Shown here one piece after another: positions 2,136 through 15,656 of a stretch of 37,559 nucleotides of DNA (positions within the stretch are counted from its first letter, which is position 1; the number at the start of each line of letters is the position of its first letter). Origin of the DNA: a bacterium (GTDB taxonomy: Bacteria > SZUA-79 > Acidulodesulfobacterales > Acidulodesulfobacteraceae); NCBI GenBank assembly GCA_021811805.1, contig JAKAQA010000003.1, positions 1 through 37,559 on the forward strand. The letters are read 5' to 3'. A program made the translations under genes and the position numbers. A model generated the notes under the pieces. It did not search any database. It saw only the letters and a program-made list of their open reading frames with translations, and had not been told where the DNA came from.

Positions 2136-3500
2136 CTAATTTTGCACGGCCGCTTTAACTGAATCGTAAATTGCCGACATAAGCGTTTCGAGCGTGCTTT
2201 CGTCTATGACGAGAGGCGGCATTACCACGACGACGTCGCCGAGAGGCCTTATTATTACTCCTCTTTCCCGCGCGTTAAGAACGACCTTATGCCCGATTCT
2301 CTTTCCGGCTTCAAACGGCTCTTTCGTTTCTTTGTCTTTTACTAATTCTATGCCCGCCGTAAGACCGATATTTCTTATGTCTCCTATGTTTTCCAACTGC
2401 CCGAAGTCTTTAAGGAGCTCGTTAAAACGGGCTATAACGGGTTTCATCTTATTAAGCAGTCCGTATTTTTTAAACATTTCGAGCGATTTTACGGCGCATG
2501 CGGATGCCAGCTGGTTTCCGGTATATGTATGCCCGTGAAAAAAAGTTTTGTTGTCCTGATAGTTTCCGAGAAACCCGTCGTAAATTTCCTGAGTGAAAAG
2601 CGTAGCCGCCATAGGAAGATAACCGCCCGTTATGCCTTTTGCCATACACATAGCGTCGGGCGAAATATCCTCGTGGAAAGCGGCAAACATTTCTCCGGTT
2701 CTTCCGAAACCGGTGGCTACTTCGTCGAGTATAAGAAGGATGCCGTTGTCTTTGCACGCCCTTTCTATTTTTTTCATATATCCCGCGGGCATTGTTATCA
2801 TTCCCGAAGCCCCCTGAAGCATAGGTTCGATTATGAGCGCACAGGACTCCTCGGCATGGACTTTTATTATTTTTTCGGCTTCTTTGGCGCAGTATAACCC
2901 GCAATCGGGATGCTTAAGATTGAAAGGACATCTATAGCAGTAAGGATAAGTAATCCTGACCGTTTCAAAGAGCAGCGGCTTGTAAATGGAATGGAAAAGT
3001 TCGATGCCCCCTACCGAAACGCTTCCCAAGGTGTCGCCGTGATAAGCCGACGTAGCGGCGATAATTTTTTTCTTGTTTTTATACGCCGGCCCTTTTTGCC
3101 TGAAATATTGGAAAGCGACCTTGACCGCGATTTCGACCGAAGTAGAACCGGAATCCGAATAAAAAACTTTTTTAAGGTTTTTAGGCGCGATTTCGATAAG
3201 TTTTTCGGCGAGAACCGCGGACGGCACGTTTGCAAGCCCTAATAGAGTGCTGTGCGATATTTTATCGAGCTGTTCCTTTAGCGCCGAGTTCAGTTCCGGA
3301 TTGTTGTGTCCGTGAACGTTTACCCATAAAGACGATACTCCGTCGATATATTTGTTTCCGTAAATATCGTACAGATAAACTCCCTCTCCTCTTTCTATCA
3401 GGATATTCCGCTCTTTTTCCCAGTCCGACATCTGCGTAAAAGGGTGCCAGACAAATTCGCGGTCTAATTTTTCGATATCTGCGCCCTGCATATTTTTCAT
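2136..3500 (-). CDS. bioA: Adenosylmethionine-8-amino-7-oxononanoate aminotransferase
   Basis: A 454-residue class III aminotransferase that makes 7,8-diaminopelargonate from KAPA using SAM as amino donor, the antepenultimate step of biotin synthesis in the cytosol. WHPFTQM at 18-24 is typical of BioA. SGST at 117-120 forms the PLP phosphate cup. LDEVATGFGRTG at 258-269 has the cofactor Asp259, and MAKGITGG carries the Schiff-base Lys288. A cysteine-rich insert (C188, C191, C200, C204) occurs in the middle, as in several non-enteric BioA proteins. No other bio gene is in view. It follows the PHP gene by 17 bases. The start is ambiguous between M1 and M4 because neither has a good ribosome site. 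Confidence 0.95.
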   Translation of the reverse strand: MKNMQGADIEKLDREFVWHPFTQMSDWEKERNILIERGEGVYLYDIYGNKYIDGVSSLWVNVHGHNNPELNSALKEQLDKISHSTLLGLANVPSAVLAEKLIEIAPKNLKKVFYSDSGSTSVEIAVKVAFQYFRQKGPAYKNKKKIIAATSAYHGDTLGSVSVGGIELFHSIYKPLLFETVRITYPYCYRCPFNLKHPDCGLYCAKEAEKIIKVHAEESCALIIEPMLQGASGMITMPAGYMKKIERACKDNGILLILDEVATGFGRTGEMFAAFHEDISPDAMCMAKGITGGYLPMAATLFTQEIYDGFLGNYQDNKTFFHGHTYTGNQLASACAVKSLEMFKKYGLLNKMKPVIARFNELLKDFGQLENIGDIRNIGLTAGIELVKDKETKEPFEAGKRIGHKVVLNARERGVIIRPLGDVVVVMPPLVIDESTLETLMSAIYDSVKAAVQN

Positions 3501-3517
3501 AATTTTATAAATATAAA

Positions 3518-4762
3518 TTAATAAATTTCTATGTTATTCGAATAAAGATACGTTATTTTTTTCCGCCCGAAATAAACGTCTATCTCGACCCTGTAAAAAG
3601 ACGGGATATCCGAGACCGGTTTTATTTCATAAACCAGTCCGCCGTTTTTTGAAGAAAATATCTTTTTGCCGTTACGGAATAAATTTATTATATACGGATT
3701 TTTTTTCGGATTTATATCTATTCCGGAATATATTATAACATTTTTACCGTTTTTGTCTATATGCGGGGCGGCGGCCGGAGCCGCCGAATCTCCGCTGAAA
3801 TAATATTTTTCCCCGATAGAAGCATAGTAATAAAACCCTTTCGGAATTCCGAACAGGTCGAAGGAGAAAAAACACCTTCCTTTTTTCACGGCTTCCGTTA
3901 TTTTCTTTTTGTCCCCCGATAAATCTCCGGACAGCCTGCCGTCAAGAAGGATATGCGTCCTGGCTACGGAAAAAAGTTCGGAATATTTAGGGAATTTAAT
4001 TCTGCGCTTTTTCGTTAATTTTACGTTTGAATGGGCGTCTGCCGCCGCTATGCCCGTCTTCATAGATTTGTGCTTTTGGACGCCGTCCCAGAATTTTATC
4101 GTCTTTACCGGCTTATGCGATAAAAAATGCAACGCATAGAAAGGATTTATACGGTACGACAGAATTACCGCAACTATATATAAAGGGTTCATTCCCCTCC
4201 ATTGCGAATCAAGATTTATAATTTCGATGCCGTCGTATCCTTTAACTTTAAAATTTTTCCACGGGGTCCACCAGTTATACGGATGGCATATGACGGCGGC
4301 GCCGTTCTGCCTTTTAATATCCGATAAAATCTCTTTATATTTTCCTCTTTTTATCTCTTTTTCTATTCCGAGCGCAAGAAGATGTCCGAATTCCGTATTT
4401 ATTTCTTCCGCGGCAAAATATAAAAGTCTCCCGTAGTAATAACCTTCGAGTCCGTCCGATTTAGGCTTAAGCGTGTTATGGTCGGAGGAAACGAGAAAGT
4501 CCGCTTTAAGTTTTTTAGCGGTTTCTATAAGGTCTTCTATGCGTCCTGAGCCGTCCGAATATACGGTATGAAAATGAATAATCCCGTTTATCTCGAAAAG
4601 TTTCGGGACGGGGAGGTTTTCGTTTTTGCCGCTTAAAAAATCTATTTTTAATTTAAAAAATTTTATCCTAAAATAAATAAGCAGTATCAAAAGCGCCGCA
4701 AAAACTAAAAACAGCCTCGAAGATACGATAAAGACGGCAATGTTCATAAATTTCGTTTCCAA
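3518..4762 (-). CDS. Membrane-anchored PHP-domain phosphoesterase
   Basis: A 414-residue protein with one N-terminal membrane helix (residues 8-32) followed by a PHP metal-dependent phosphoesterase domain. Visible metal-site motifs are HFHTVYSDGSG at 63-73, SSDHNT at 92-97, the acidic pair E119/E120, CHP at 159-161 and AADAHS at 240-245, in the normal PHP order. The last 130 residues look like a beta-rich domain often found after PHP in CehA-like proteins. The tail is not recognised further. PHP enzymes hydrolyse phosphoesters with two or three metals; the substrate here is unknown. The frame opens with TTG at 4762; an ATG five codons later (4747) is an equally plausible start. It is transcribed just ahead of bioA, with waaA upstream. 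Confidence 0.85.
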   Translation of the reverse strand: METKFMNIAVFIVSSRLFLVFAALLILLIYFRIKFFKLKIDFLSGKNENLPVPKLFEINGIIHFHTVYSDGSGRIEDLIETAKKLKADFLVSSDHNTLKPKSDGLEGYYYGRLLYFAAEEINTEFGHLLALGIEKEIKRGKYKEILSDIKRQNGAAVICHPYNWWTPWKNFKVKGYDGIEIINLDSQWRGMNPLYIVAVILSYRINPFYALHFLSHKPVKTIKFWDGVQKHKSMKTGIAAADAHSNVKLTKKRRIKFPKYSELFSVARTHILLDGRLSGDLSGDKKKITEAVKKGRCFFSFDLFGIPKGFYYYASIGEKYYFSGDSAAPAAAPHIDKNGKNVIIYSGIDINPKKNPYIINLFRNGKKIFSSKNGGLVYEIKPVSDIPSFYRVEIDVYFGRKKITYLYSNNIEIY

Positions 4763-10703: not shown

Positions 10704-11933
10704 TTATAGCGTTAAAAGGATATCAATAGGATTTATATCTAATTTTAATTTTAACGGTGAAACCGCATCGGCAATCCTATCGCTGAACCCCTCGAATAAA
10801 TCTACTTCGACCGGTTTAACGTATTTTTTAATAATAGAATCATAAAATACTTTAATTATAGGGGTCAACAGACTTTTTCCATTCTGTTGAATGACTAATG
10901 CCACCCTTCCCGACTCAAGCATAACAAAACTGCCGGTTGGATAAATCCCTATAGTATGTATAAACTGTTCTACAAGCAGTCTGTCAAATTTAGAGCCTCT
11001 CCATTCGAATATCTTGCTTAATGCCTTATTCGGTATTAAGCCTTTACGATATAAACGGTCGAAAGCTATAGCATCGTAAACATCGCATATTGCGGCAATT
11101 CTCCCAAACTTTGATATCTTATCTCCCTTAAGGCCTTTAGGATAACCGGAGCCGTCATAATTTTCATGATGTTCGCAAATAATCTGCTTTGAAATTTCCG
11201 GTATATCAGGTATTTGATCTATAATTTTTCTGCTTTCCGCCACGTGCTCTTTTGCTATATTAAATTCTATTTCGGTAAGTTTTACGGTTTTATTAATAAT
11301 TTTATTATCAATTTTTGCTTTACCTGTATCATGTAATAACCCTCCTAAACCGGCGCTATTAACGCTTTGCTCATCAAAACCCAATGAATTGCAAAAAGCT
11401 ACAATTAATGAACACACCGATATGGAATGCTGAAATATATGGTCATTTTTATTTTTAGAACTGCATAACAATAATAAAGCATCTTGGCATTTTGTTATGG
11501 ACTCGGATATTTGAGCCACGCTTAATTTAGCCTTATCTTCCGAAATACGCCGTCCTTTGCTTACATCGTCAATAATATAGCGGATAATTCTGCCTGCTTC
11601 ATTATACGTTTTTTGAGCGCTGTCTAATTCATCATATATGCTTACTTTAACTTTGTCTTCACCGTTTTTTTTATCATCAGCGATTTTATCCATTTCATTT
11701 TTGAGGTTTTTTAAAATATCGCTGTAGGACGGTGCATCCGGCACGTCAAGCCCTTTGGATGTATCAATATATACCGCACGTATTCCGGCATCGATTAATT
11801 TACGAATTACGCCATCGTCTTTAACCTGAAACCTGCTTAGGATAAAAGGGTGGTCCATATAACCCTCGTCAAGGTCGGAAATATACATACCTACCTTAAG
11901 CTGTTCTACGAGAATTTTTTTAATTTTCTTCAT
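10704..11933 (-). CDS. HD-GYP domain c-di-GMP phosphodiesterase
   Basis: A 409-residue cytosolic protein. The N-terminus (VEQLKVGMYISDLD near 9-22) matches the DUF3391 module that commonly precedes HD-GYP. The catalytic domain shows H169 (FQHSISV), the HD pair H201-D202 (LLHDTGKAKID), H230, H255/H256 (CEHHENYDGSGYP) and D284, the normal metal ligands. The GYP signature is intact at 263-265. HD-GYP enzymes hydrolyse c-di-GMP, usually to GMP. It is the last gene of the c-di-GMP cluster; the next cyclase gene stops 37 bases upstream of its ATG. No clear ribosome site is seen. Confidence 0.93.
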   Translation of the reverse strand: MKKIKKILVEQLKVGMYISDLDEGYMDHPFILSRFQVKDDGVIRKLIDAGIRAVYIDTSKGLDVPDAPSYSDILKNLKNEMDKIADDKKNGEDKVKVSIYDELDSAQKTYNEAGRIIRYIIDDVSKGRRISEDKAKLSVAQISESITKCQDALLLLCSSKNKNDHIFQHSISVCSLIVAFCNSLGFDEQSVNSAGLGGLLHDTGKAKIDNKIINKTVKLTEIEFNIAKEHVAESRKIIDQIPDIPEISKQIICEHHENYDGSGYPKGLKGDKISKFGRIAAICDVYDAIAFDRLYRKGLIPNKALSKIFEWRGSKFDRLLVEQFIHTIGIYPTGSFVMLESGRVALVIQQNGKSLLTPIIKVFYDSIIKKYVKPVEVDLFEGFSDRIADAVSPLKLKLDINPIDILLTL

Positions 11934-12883: not shown

Positions 12884-14894
12884 TTATTCATTATATAATT
12901 GCCAGAACGTTTCTCTCTCTCCCTTTTTCGCCTTTATGCCGTACATTGCGTTGTCAGCGTGAACCAGCAATAGATACGGCGGCTGTTTGTCTAAAGGGTA
13001 AAGGGTAATGCCTAAACTTATTTTTAAATAAATATCGTTCCCTTTTATAATAATGGGTTTTGCAAATGCCTTTTCTATTCTCGGAATAAGTATATATAAG
13101 TCGTCCTTATTTTTTAAATCCTCCATAATTATAACAAACTCGTCTCCTCCAAGCCTGACTAAGTGGTCCGTCTGCCTTAAAATATTTTTTAATCTTTTTG
13201 CAAATTCTTTTAAAAGATTGTCTCCCTCATCGTGTCCGAAGGTATCGTTAATTTGTTTAAAGTCGTCGAAGTCGATCATCCCTACGCCGACATAAGTTTT
13301 ACCTCTATCCGCCCTATTCAGCGCTCCTTCCAAAAGCTGAGTAAGAAGAAGCCTGTTAGGAAGTCCGGTAAGCGCATCGTGGTGGGCAAGATATTCCGAT
13401 CTTCTTTTCTCCTTTTCAAGTTCATTTTTGATATCTATTTCATTAAGGCTGTGGGATAAAAGGGCGGATATTTTAGAAACGAATTCGAGTATCTCCTTGT
13501 CAAAGACATTCTTTTTGTCGGAAATCAAAGTAATAACTCCCCACACCTTGCCGGCCCTGTGGATGGGGGCGGCGCAGGCGGAGAGCCACTCATTTTTTAT
13601 CAGAAAATCAAGATACGGCTCAAGAAGCGGGTCGGAAATATGGTCGTTATTATAAACTATGCGGTTTAAACATACAGCCCTTTCGGCAAGCGTCAAAAAC
13701 TTTTTATCGCAGTCCGCGTTTAATTTTATCTTCATTAGTTCCTGCGTTCCTCTGCCTCTGGCGGATATATATTTGATATTCCCGTCAGATTCAAGCCTAC
13801 CTATCCATACGGCGTTGATAATGCCGCTTTTTTGCAGGGCGACAAGCGTCCTGTGAAAAACGGCATTCTCGCTTTCGGGGTTTAATATTAAAGAAACTTC
13901 CTTTATTAATGATTCATATAGCTGTTTAAGCGACTTTATTTTAGATTCGCTTGCGAGCCTTTCGGTAACATCCAGAATCGTTGCAACAGCTAACGGCGCA
14001 TCCTTTTTATAAATTAATGTAAGGCCGACCTCGATATCCCTTATTTCTCCATTTTTTAAAGGAAATTTAAGCCCTCTGAAAGTTTTATCTTTTCCTTCCT
14101 TGAATTTATCCAAAAGTTTAAAAATTATATCCTTTGTAATAAACGGGTCGATTTCGTCCAGAGTCTTTCCCTCGACCTCGTTTTCGGCATATCCGCCGTA
14201 TTTTATAGCGGATTCGTTTACATCCAGTAAAACAAGAGTTTCTAAATCAAAAGTAAACATCGGGATGGAATTATCGTAAAACATAGATTTGAACTGTTTT
14301 TCGCTCTCCATTCTATCCGTTATATCGTGCCCTACGGCTATAGACAGCAGTCTTCCGCCTTTTTCGTCAAAAATAGGTATCTTTGTAATATCAAAGATAT
14401 GGGAAGCTTTATTCCTATCATAAAGTTGGAGTAAAAAATTATGGGGGTTTTCTGTTACCCATATTATTTTGTCGGCATCTTCTACTGTTTTAAAGAAATC
14501 TTCCGATTGAAAGGATGAACTTTTTATTTGCTCATCCGTTTTACCTACAGTAGAAGTAAGGTCAGGAGTAGAATGAAATTCCTCCGCGCTTTTGCTGGCT
14601 GCTATATATACTCCCGAAGGATTTTTAACTACAATGGTATCGGTGGTATATTTCATTACTGCATCAAAAAGCCTTTTTTGCTCCGATAATTTCAAATCTC
14701 TCTTGGCAATCAGATAAGACGATAAAAATATCGAAGAAATAATTATGAATGCGCCGAAAAAAAATATTTATATTAAACCTTCTTATAGCATAATTGAAAT
14801 CACCGGTAAAATATACTATTAATGCCGAAAACATTAAAAGTATTACTCCTATCGTCAGTCCGATTAAAAACTGCTTTGATTTCAGAACGTTCAA
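12884..14894 (-). CDS. Membrane PAS-PAS-GAF-GGDEF diguanylate cyclase, split by a one-base frameshift
   Basis: The catalytic part (12884-14695, 603 residues from a TTG) has two PAS domains (about 5-130 and 135-255), a GAF domain (about 270-420) and a GGDEF domain with GGDEF at 516-520 and an RQTD I-site five residues before it. Upstream, a separate frame from TTG at 14894 encodes a membrane helix (FLIGLTIGVILLMFSALIVY). A second helix (FGAFIIISSIFLSSYLIA) lies in the frame of the catalytic part, just before it. The two frames meet in a run of eight A (14757-14764; T8 in the mRNA sense). Removing one base fuses everything into a 669-residue protein. AAAGGAGG precedes the TTG at 14894, confirming that as the native start. 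This is either an assembly error, phase variation or a real mutation. Confidence 0.85.
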
Positions 14895-15060
14895 AAATAT
14901 ATGCCTCCTTTAATATAGTAGTAATATATGTTTACAAATTTATTTTAAAAAACAAATACAACATTAATTATAATAATTAATAACAACTATTTCAAATTAA
15001 AATATATATTGCAAAATCACGGAATTTTCCCTATGCATAATTTAAAATTTACTTATAACA

Positions 15061-15382
15061 TTATTTGATTATTTTGAACGCTTCTTGTTCCGGCATGGGT
15101 TTTGCCAGTAAAAATCCCTGAACGTAACAACAGCCTAAGGATTTCAATATATCGAACTGCTCCTGCGTTTCCACTCCTTCGGCTATCGTTTTTAAACCGA
15201 GTTCTTTGGAAAGTTCGATATTTGAGGTTTTCAATATTGCTTTTATTGTCTGGAATATCCGATAAATATTCTTTTTTAGCCGAGGTATTTAAAAAAATTA
15301 CGTCGTATTTATCGTTAATTACTAAAATAGGATGCAGCAATTTATCGAATAAAGAATAATCGTCCTCGATTTTTTTGCTCAT
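15061..15382 (-). pseudogene. Deleted PAS...EAL phosphodiesterase remnant
   Basis: The first 45 or so codons from ATG 15382 read as a PAS start (LLHPILVINDKYDVIFLNTS). Near 15240-15250 the sequence jumps, in another frame, to the last third of an EAL domain: ELGLKTIAEGVETQEQF, then GCCYVQGFLLAKPMPEQEAF, ending with TAA at 15063-15061. The catalytic EAL motif and most of the domain are gone, and the two parts are out of frame. The open frame of 109 residues that covers this stretch is therefore not a natural protein. It is a decayed member of the same c-di-GMP cluster. Confidence 0.8.
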
Positions 15383-15656
15383 ATTATAATTTATTTTTTC
15401 GCATTAAATTTTAATATTTATCGATAAATATTATTATTCAATAATTTATATTATATAATTATAAATAATATTTTTTAATAACAGATTATAATTTTATAAT
15501 AATACCCCTCCCCCATCAAGTTTTTTAAGAAACTTTAACCCTGCATTAGAAATTTTATTTTCTGGATGCCTTTTATGCAGAAAAATAATTTTCTATCGGC
15601 AATTTTAGGTATTTTATACGTCTTTTCTGTAATTTCTATCCGGCATAATCGGCGTA
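15383..15656. other. AT-rich intergenic stretch with a 22-base palindrome
   Basis: No gene is visible. A perfect palindrome lies at 15412-15433 (arms TAATATTTATC / GATAAATATTA) about 30 bases upstream of the PAS-EAL remnant start, in operator position. The rest is AT-rich with only short degenerate repeats. Confidence 0.6.

What the first reader, a model, noticed from the sequence alone, without database searches (positions are those of the whole stretch)
14757..14764. Homopolymer-split membrane diguanylate cyclase
An eight-A run separates a start with a strong ribosome site plus membrane helix 1 from membrane helix 2 and the PAS-PAS-GAF-GGDEF body. One base fewer gives a continuous 669-residue protein. 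A run of this kind is a candidate for phase-variable or slippage-controlled c-di-GMP synthesis.
Basis: seen in the sequence. Interest (0 to 1): 0.55.

Follow-up and report, generated by a model that had tools for sequence, protein, structure and literature searches.

The report
Broken copy of switchable signalling enzyme
The enzyme gene here is broken by one extra base just beside, not inside, the eight-A run, and in related bacteria the same kind of gene carries a run of G's of varying length that looks like an on-off switch for a biofilm signal.

Summary
The A8 run (14757-14764) and the split diguanylate cyclase are real, but the run is not the lesion: in-frame relatives also carry eight, and the window has one extra A in a neighbouring run (14767-14769). 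Such runs are ordinary here. One low-coverage relative does have T7, its only indel in 3,540 bp. The adjacent GGDEF-EAL partner is a deletion remnant, so the locus looks decaying; assembly error is not excluded. Wider result: in this family the tracts that look like switches of c-di-GMP genes are poly-G. A promoter-like TTGA-G8-TATNAT motif occurs at 22 sites in 15 of 30 family genomes, its C8 version at none. Of 19 sites with a gene in view, 12 precede a GGDEF gene. Two contigs differ by one substitution and one indel in 2,330 bp, G10/G11 before this same enzyme. MutS and MutL domains were found in 0 of 30 family genomes; MutS in 61 of 69 others. The window gene's own promoter lacks the G-tract. 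No switching was measured.

The parts
14757..14764 (-). T8 on the coding strand (A8 on +), the reported run; same length in in-frame relatives
14767..14769 (-). AAA on the coding strand where all 8 aligned loci have one A fewer: the frame-breaking extra base
14664..14894 (-). 76-aa leader ORF (TTG start, first hydrophobic stretch), ends in TGA 14666-14664
14904..14909 (-). AGGAGG ribosome-binding site of the leader start
14967..14995 (-). promoter-like TTGAAA-17-TATAAT without a G-tract; the same sequence is present in L034 and L035
12884..14695 (-). open body ORF, 603 aa, PAS-(PAS)-GAF-GGDEF; GGDEF motif and RxxD upstream of it read from sequence
14654..14656 (-). in-frame ATG of the body 7 nt after the leader stop; possible re-initiation site (inference)
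15053..15382 (-). remnant of an upstream PAS-GGDEF-EAL gene: PAS N-terminus joined out of frame to the EAL end (EAL piece 15061-15234); about 1.35 kb present in L034 is missing
15505..15514 (-). interrupted G-tract GGGGGAGGGG between TTGATG (15519-15514, sharing one G) and TATTAT (15504-15499), a degenerate form of the G10 promoter tract of L034
11971..12822 (-). second GGDEF gene, downstream
10704..11933 (-). DUF3391-HD_5 (HD-GYP type) gene, downstream

Best explanation
The window holds a membrane diguanylate cyclase (DGC) gene put out of frame by one extra A immediately upstream of a T8 run of normal length. Most likely it is a genuine frameshift in a lineage without MutS/MutL mismatch repair, in a c-di-GMP locus that is decaying (the adjacent GGDEF-EAL partner is a deletion remnant and that partner's G-tract is interrupted). 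The gene belongs to a family of DGCs that in relatives carries poly-G contingency tracts: between the -35 and -10 boxes (L036, L038, L039) or within the first codons (L037, L040, L042). There, slipped-strand changes in tract length would alter promoter spacing or reading frame and so switch c-di-GMP synthesis on and off. Shown: the lesion position relative to relatives, the tracts, their promoter-like setting, their length differences, their gene neighbours, and no detectable MutS/MutL. Inferred: switching, expression, enzyme activity, and that the window lesion is real rather than an assembly error.
For: Extra A shared by none of the 8 aligned loci, T8 shared by 5 of 8. Body under purifying selection: dN/dS 0.13-0.25 against 8 loci; window-private codon changes 12 synonymous to 8 non-synonymous (one alignment column dropped to read frames). 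Partner gene present in L034, L035 and L042, reduced to a remnant in the window. Promoter-spacer motif with G8: 22 distinct sites in 15 of 30 family genomes; C8 version 0 of 30; reversed pattern 0 of 30. GGDEF in 12 of the 19 sites with a gene in view, against 9-25 GGDEF matches per genome in the 19 family genomes counted. L036 and L039: one mismatch and one indel (G10/G11) in 2,330 bp. 9 of 11 non-duplicate homologous tract pairs with both flanks abutting differ in length. MutS_I, MutL_C and MutS_V each 0 of 30, controls 11 of 14; MutS_I in 61 of 69 outgroup genomes.
Against: No reads or coverage for the window's MAG are on hand, so an assembly error cannot be excluded. The window gene's own promoter has no G-tract, so the family-level switch does not act on this copy directly. 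L033 shows T7 in the same run, an independent indel within a few bases of the window's; two random indels that close in about 2 kb have probability near 0.006, which hints that the spot itself is unstable. The family genomes are MAGs, several tracts lie near contig ends (11 of 69 runs within 150 nt of the end of the fetched stretch), and L033 and L039 sit in bins of other genera, so they are probably misbinned contigs. Orthologous sites are not independent. Only 13 of 22 sites have the nearest -10 at a spacing of 15-19.
Confidence: 0.55

Rival explanations
1. Assembly or consensus error: the extra A is not in the organism and the gene is an intact 669-aa DGC.
For: MAG in 169 contigs, 84% complete; body fully open with no other indel in the alignment and selection still visible.
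Against: 26 gene-sized ORFs were taken as genes in the window, and 11 A/T runs of 8-9 inside them cause no break (completeness of those genes was judged by length, not tested one by one). The neighbouring partner gene is clearly damaged by a large deletion, and the family appears to lack mismatch repair, so true indels are expected.
Confidence: 0.27
2. One reading: the T8 run is a slippage switch in this genome, toggling the full-length DGC.
For: T7 in L033 against T8 in L036 is the only indel in 3,540 bp; A7/A8 in the neighbouring gene separates L034 from L035; no MutS/MutL found.
Against: The window run is at the length found in in-frame relatives; the extra base is in the AAA. Runs of 8 A/T are common in open genes here. 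A loss of one T would restore the frame but leave N-I-N-I-F-F where relatives have N-I-I-F-F-F.
Confidence: 0.1
3. The split is used: the leader peptide is made and the soluble PAS-GAF-GGDEF body is translated by re-initiation at ATG 14656 or by a +1 ribosomal shift at UUU UUU CGG.
For: The leader stop lies 7 nt before an in-frame ATG. CGG is used 39 times in about 10,800 codons.
Against: All relatives that hold both parts are in frame except L033 (whose contig starts inside the first part), so the split arrangement is not conserved. CGA and CGT are rarer than CGG. No special signal was found.
Confidence: 0.06

Closest known systems
Transcriptional, translational and C-terminal phase variation by homopolymeric tracts in Neisseria (fetA, porA, pilC), as set out in PMC5320596 (passages read)
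   Same: [quoted passage not shown] All three placements are seen here: DGC promoters (L036, L039), 5' coding (L037), 3' end of a GAF-HD gene (L117, L150).
   Different: The Neisseria examples in the passages seen are mainly surface proteins; here many of the targets are c-di-GMP enzymes in an uncultivated lineage. Switching has not been measured.
Phase-variable c-di-GMP phosphodiesterases pdcB/pdcC of Clostridioides difficile (PMC9286219, search listing and start of abstract; PMC11868660, passages)
   Same: Stochastic switching placed upstream of c-di-GMP turnover genes.
   Different: There an invertible promoter and site-specific recombination; here a homopolymer in the promoter spacer, mostly before GGDEF genes.
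Intergenic homopolymer indels in Pseudomonas aeruginosa evolution (PMC8115180, passages)
   Same: Intergenic homopolymer indels proposed to work together with c-di-GMP enzymes.
   Different: A speculation about separate mechanisms acting in synergy, not tracts placed at GGDEF promoters.
Membrane PAS-GAF-GGDEF diguanylate cyclases (Pfam PF00990)
   Same: GGDEF domain E 8.3e-45, PAS and GAF domains.
   Different: The window copy has its membrane N-terminus out of frame.

Membership tests
Simple-sequence contingency (phase-variable) locus | Hypermutable mononucleotide tract placed where its length would alter expression | tested here: met
   For relatives: promoter-spacer G-tracts at 22 sites in 15 of 30 family genomes, C control 0. 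For the window DGC itself: not met, its promoter has no G-tract.
Simple-sequence contingency (phase-variable) locus | Tract length differs between closely related strains while flanks do not | tested here: met
   For relatives: L036 G10 versus L039 G11, one mismatch and one indel in 2,330 bp; 9 of 11 homologous pairs differ. For the window T8 against in-frame relatives: same length.
Simple-sequence contingency (phase-variable) locus | Reversible switching of expression within a clone | not testable with these tools
   No reads, cultures or expression data.
   Window T8; L034, L035, L036, L037, L039 also T8. One other locus, L033, does differ (T7).
Programmed frameshift or split gene | Out-of-frame arrangement conserved in relatives | tested here: not met
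   In frame in L034-L039, and in L040 with its own different N-terminus.
Diguanylate cyclase (GGDEF) | GGDEF domain with catalytic motif | tested here: met
   PF00990 E 8.3e-45; GGDEF and RxxD read from the translation.
Diguanylate cyclase (GGDEF) | Makes c-di-GMP | not testable with these tools
   No assay.
Pseudogene | Disabled reading frame with relaxed selection | tested here: inconclusive
   Frame broken; body dN/dS still low and private changes 12 synonymous to 8 non-synonymous: recent event, truncated use or error.

The most novel reading that the evidence does not exclude
A whole bacterial family without MutS/MutL mismatch repair has built its c-di-GMP network on poly-G contingency loci: G-tracts in promoter spacers, start regions and 3' ends of many GGDEF, GGDEF-EAL and HD-GYP type genes, plus a chemoreceptor, a FliK, lipoprotein-like genes and a sigma-70-type factor, so that each cell draws a random combination of second-messenger enzymes. 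The window's A3/T8 spot would be a broken member of that set.
Probability: 0.55. Interest if true: 0.72.

Novelty: new variant of a known kind. Interest (0 to 1): 0.55.

Why it matters
Phase variation is known mainly for surface structures of host-associated bacteria. A 2025 review (PMC11868660, passages) names the link with c-di-GMP as a new insight and, in the passages seen, gives only phosphodiesterases switched by inversion or epigenetically (and a signal transducer in C. difficile). Homopolymer-switched cyclases as a class, in an environmental lineage lacking mismatch repair, would extend bet-hedging to the motile/sessile decision itself and could be tested in existing metagenome reads. 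Searches for precedents in print; none of the listings showed it, but the library holds only open-licence papers.

Tried and rejected
T8 as the lesion: rejected by the alignment with 8 loci. A8 as an unusual run: rejected. A shared regulatory element at G000:C132 (75% identity over 64 nt): its neighbours are ORFs that look ParA-like and formyltetrahydrofolate-deformylase-like by eye, so I took it for an AT-rich chance match. Programmed +1 shift: CGG is not the rarest arginine codon and the split is not conserved. Poly-G as a sequencing artefact: many tracts are interior, sit between promoter-like boxes and are homologous between assemblies, but 11 of 69 lie close to the end of the fetched stretch and those may be unreliable. 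Enrichment of long runs: with a window-based first-order Markov model 31 G/C runs of 10 or more are expected in 27.6 Mb and 69 were found (about twofold only); the excess is clear at 12 or more, 29 against 2.0. Only 18 of 69 runs of G10 or more contain or precede a c-di-GMP ORF, so many tracts have other or no clear targets. Pfam found nothing for L212 (lipoprotein-like by eye), L213, L221, L119 and L152; L218, L039, L123 and L174 were not scanned with Pfam.

Full report
What was reported. An eight-A run at 14757-14764 was said to separate the start and first membrane helix of a diguanylate cyclase (DGC) from the rest, and to be a candidate slippage switch.

What is there. The run, the ribosome site, the start and the split are real. 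The leader ORF is 76 aa (14894-14664) and the body ORF 603 aa (from 14695 down to 12884); one base fewer joins them into 669 codons, the length of the intact relatives L118 and L141. Pfam finds PAS, GAF and GGDEF in the body. The window is one whole contig of a MAG of 1.6 Mb in 169 contigs.

The run is not the lesion here. I aligned the window with 8 loci that encode the same protein at 80-93% identity. 5 of the 8 (L034, L035, L036, L037, L039) have exactly T8; L038 has a substitution making T9 and L040 is diverged, neither with a net indel; L033 has T7. All 8 lack one A that the window has, in the AAA at 14769-14767, two bases upstream of the run. So the simplest account is one inserted A. 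Runs of eight are ordinary in this AT-rich DNA: 15 A/T runs of 8 or more in the window, 28.7 expected from a Markov model, 11 inside ORFs that remain open.

L033 and L036 are 98.6% identical over 3,540 bp with a single indel, and it is T7 versus T8 in this same run. Coverage is about 3 in both (contig names) and the run is close to the contig end in L033. In the neighbouring PAS-GGDEF-EAL gene, L034 has A7 and is out of frame while L035 has A8 and is open at that point; those contigs are 99.3% identical at coverages 26 and 12 (contig names). Two indels within a few bases of each other in about 2 kb are unlikely if placed at random (about 0.006).

State of the locus. Downstream lie a second GGDEF gene and a DUF3391-HD_5 gene. 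Upstream, L034 and L035 have a PAS-GGDEF-EAL gene, of which the window keeps only the two ends, joined out of frame. L042 has that partner open but a large internal deletion in the DGC. Selection on the window body still looks purifying (dN/dS 0.13-0.25; private changes 12 synonymous, 8 non-synonymous). The damage is therefore recent, or tolerated because the soluble part suffices, or an assembly error; I cannot separate these without reads.

Following the tracts. Seven related loci carry a run of 9-13 G near the DGC or its partner. In L036, L038 and L039 the tract lies about 150 nt before the DGC start, between TTGACG and TATGAT or TATTAT. In L037, L040 and L042 it lies in the first codons; by my frame arithmetic L037 (13) is in frame, L042 (10) and L040 (9) are not. 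In L034 it lies in the promoter-like region of the partner gene; in L035 the same place reads GGGTGTGTGG, and in the window GGGGGAGGGG. The window DGC promoter has no tract.

How general this is. The motif TTGA-N2-10-G8-N0-14-TATNAT was searched in 99 genomes, 30 of the family and 69 others. Overlapping rows merged, the family has 22 sites in 15 of 30 genomes; the 69 others have 3 sites. With C8 in place of G8 the family has 0 in 30 genomes and the others 10 rows in 7 genomes; the reversed pattern gives 0 in the family and 1 elsewhere. The window's own genome has no strict match. The nearest -10 lies at a spacing of 15-19 nt in 13 of 22 sites, against about 5 of 23 possible spacings (rough, since sites are not independent).

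What they precede. Three of the 22 sites are at contig ends with no gene in view (L216, L219, L220). Of the other 19, GGDEF domains follow in 12: L118, L141, L136, L126, L125, L156, L130, L210, L214, L215 and L217 by Pfam, and L039, which was not scanned itself but is the near-identical copy of L118. L174 starts a short ORF with a GGDEF ORF about 0.4 kb further on and was not counted. The rest: a chemoreceptor (L209), a FliK (L211), two lipoprotein-like proteins by eye (L212, L218) and two unknowns (L213, L221). Family genomes hold 9-25 GGDEF matches each (19 family genomes counted). Several sites are orthologues; by my own grouping about 6 of 12 gene families are GGDEF. Among all 69 runs of G10 or more in 16 genus genomes, 18 contain or precede a c-di-GMP ORF, 7 of them in the 3' end of a GAF-HD_5 gene with lengths 13, 13, 12, 16, 10, 20 and 15.

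Length variation. L036 and L039 differ by one substitution and one indel in 2,330 bp, the indel being G10/G11. Of 11 non-duplicate pairs of tracts with both flanks homologous, 9 differ in length.

Mismatch repair. MutS_I, MutL_C and MutS_V domains were each found in 0 of 30 family genomes, 19 of them at least 90% complete, while the tool's controls rang in 11 of 14. MutS_I was found in 61 of 69 outgroup genomes. That loss of this pathway destabilises mononucleotide runs is general knowledge, not tested here.

Interpretation. The family most likely uses poly-G contingency tracts to vary c-di-GMP enzymes. The window DGC is a member that has lost or never had the tract at its own promoter and is out of frame through a neighbouring indel. 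Nothing here measures switching. Neisseria offers precedents for each placement of the tract (PMC5320596, passages); phase-variable c-di-GMP enzymes are known through promoter inversion and epigenetic control (PMC11868660, passages). The paper on Candidatus Acidulodesulfobacterales (PMC6776010, term search) has no hit for phase variation, homopolymer, poly-G, GGDEF or c-di-GMP; that the window belongs to that group is my recollection of similar MAGs and was not tested.

Noticed in passing
G000:C32 (L222:657-1564) and G014:C1 (L114, about 2315-3261 on the reverse complement of the fetched stretch): A sigma-70-type factor (by eye) is split by G10 between its N-terminal part and the region-4-like end, out of frame in both genomes; other family genomes carry open paralogues at 57-66% identity. 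Possibly a phase-variable sigma factor; in L114 a GGDEF ORF follows.
   Followed up: partly
L117, L128, L133, L150 (own genome, C15), L159, L161, L164: GAF-HD_5 gene with a G-tract of 10-20 at its 3' end in 7 genomes, upstream of a gene that looks like cobyric acid synthase by eye.
   Followed up: partly
30 genomes of the window's family: No MutS_I, MutL_C or MutS_V domain detected in any.
   Followed up: partly
L034 near 1740-1770 and L035 near 4240-4270: A7 versus A8 decides whether the PAS-GGDEF-EAL gene is in frame in two contigs 99.3% identical.
   Followed up: partly
L152:2951-4063 (G000:C35): Own-genome lipoprotein-like gene (by eye) behind TTGACA, G11 and a weak -10-like stretch.
   Followed up: no
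L143 and L167: Two different genus genomes share a G10 tract with both 200-nt flanks 100% identical, perhaps a recent transfer or shared contig.
   Followed up: no
L033 (bin of G026) and L039 (bin of G023): Contigs nearly identical to a window-genus genome lie in bins assigned to other genera, probably misbinned.
   Followed up: no
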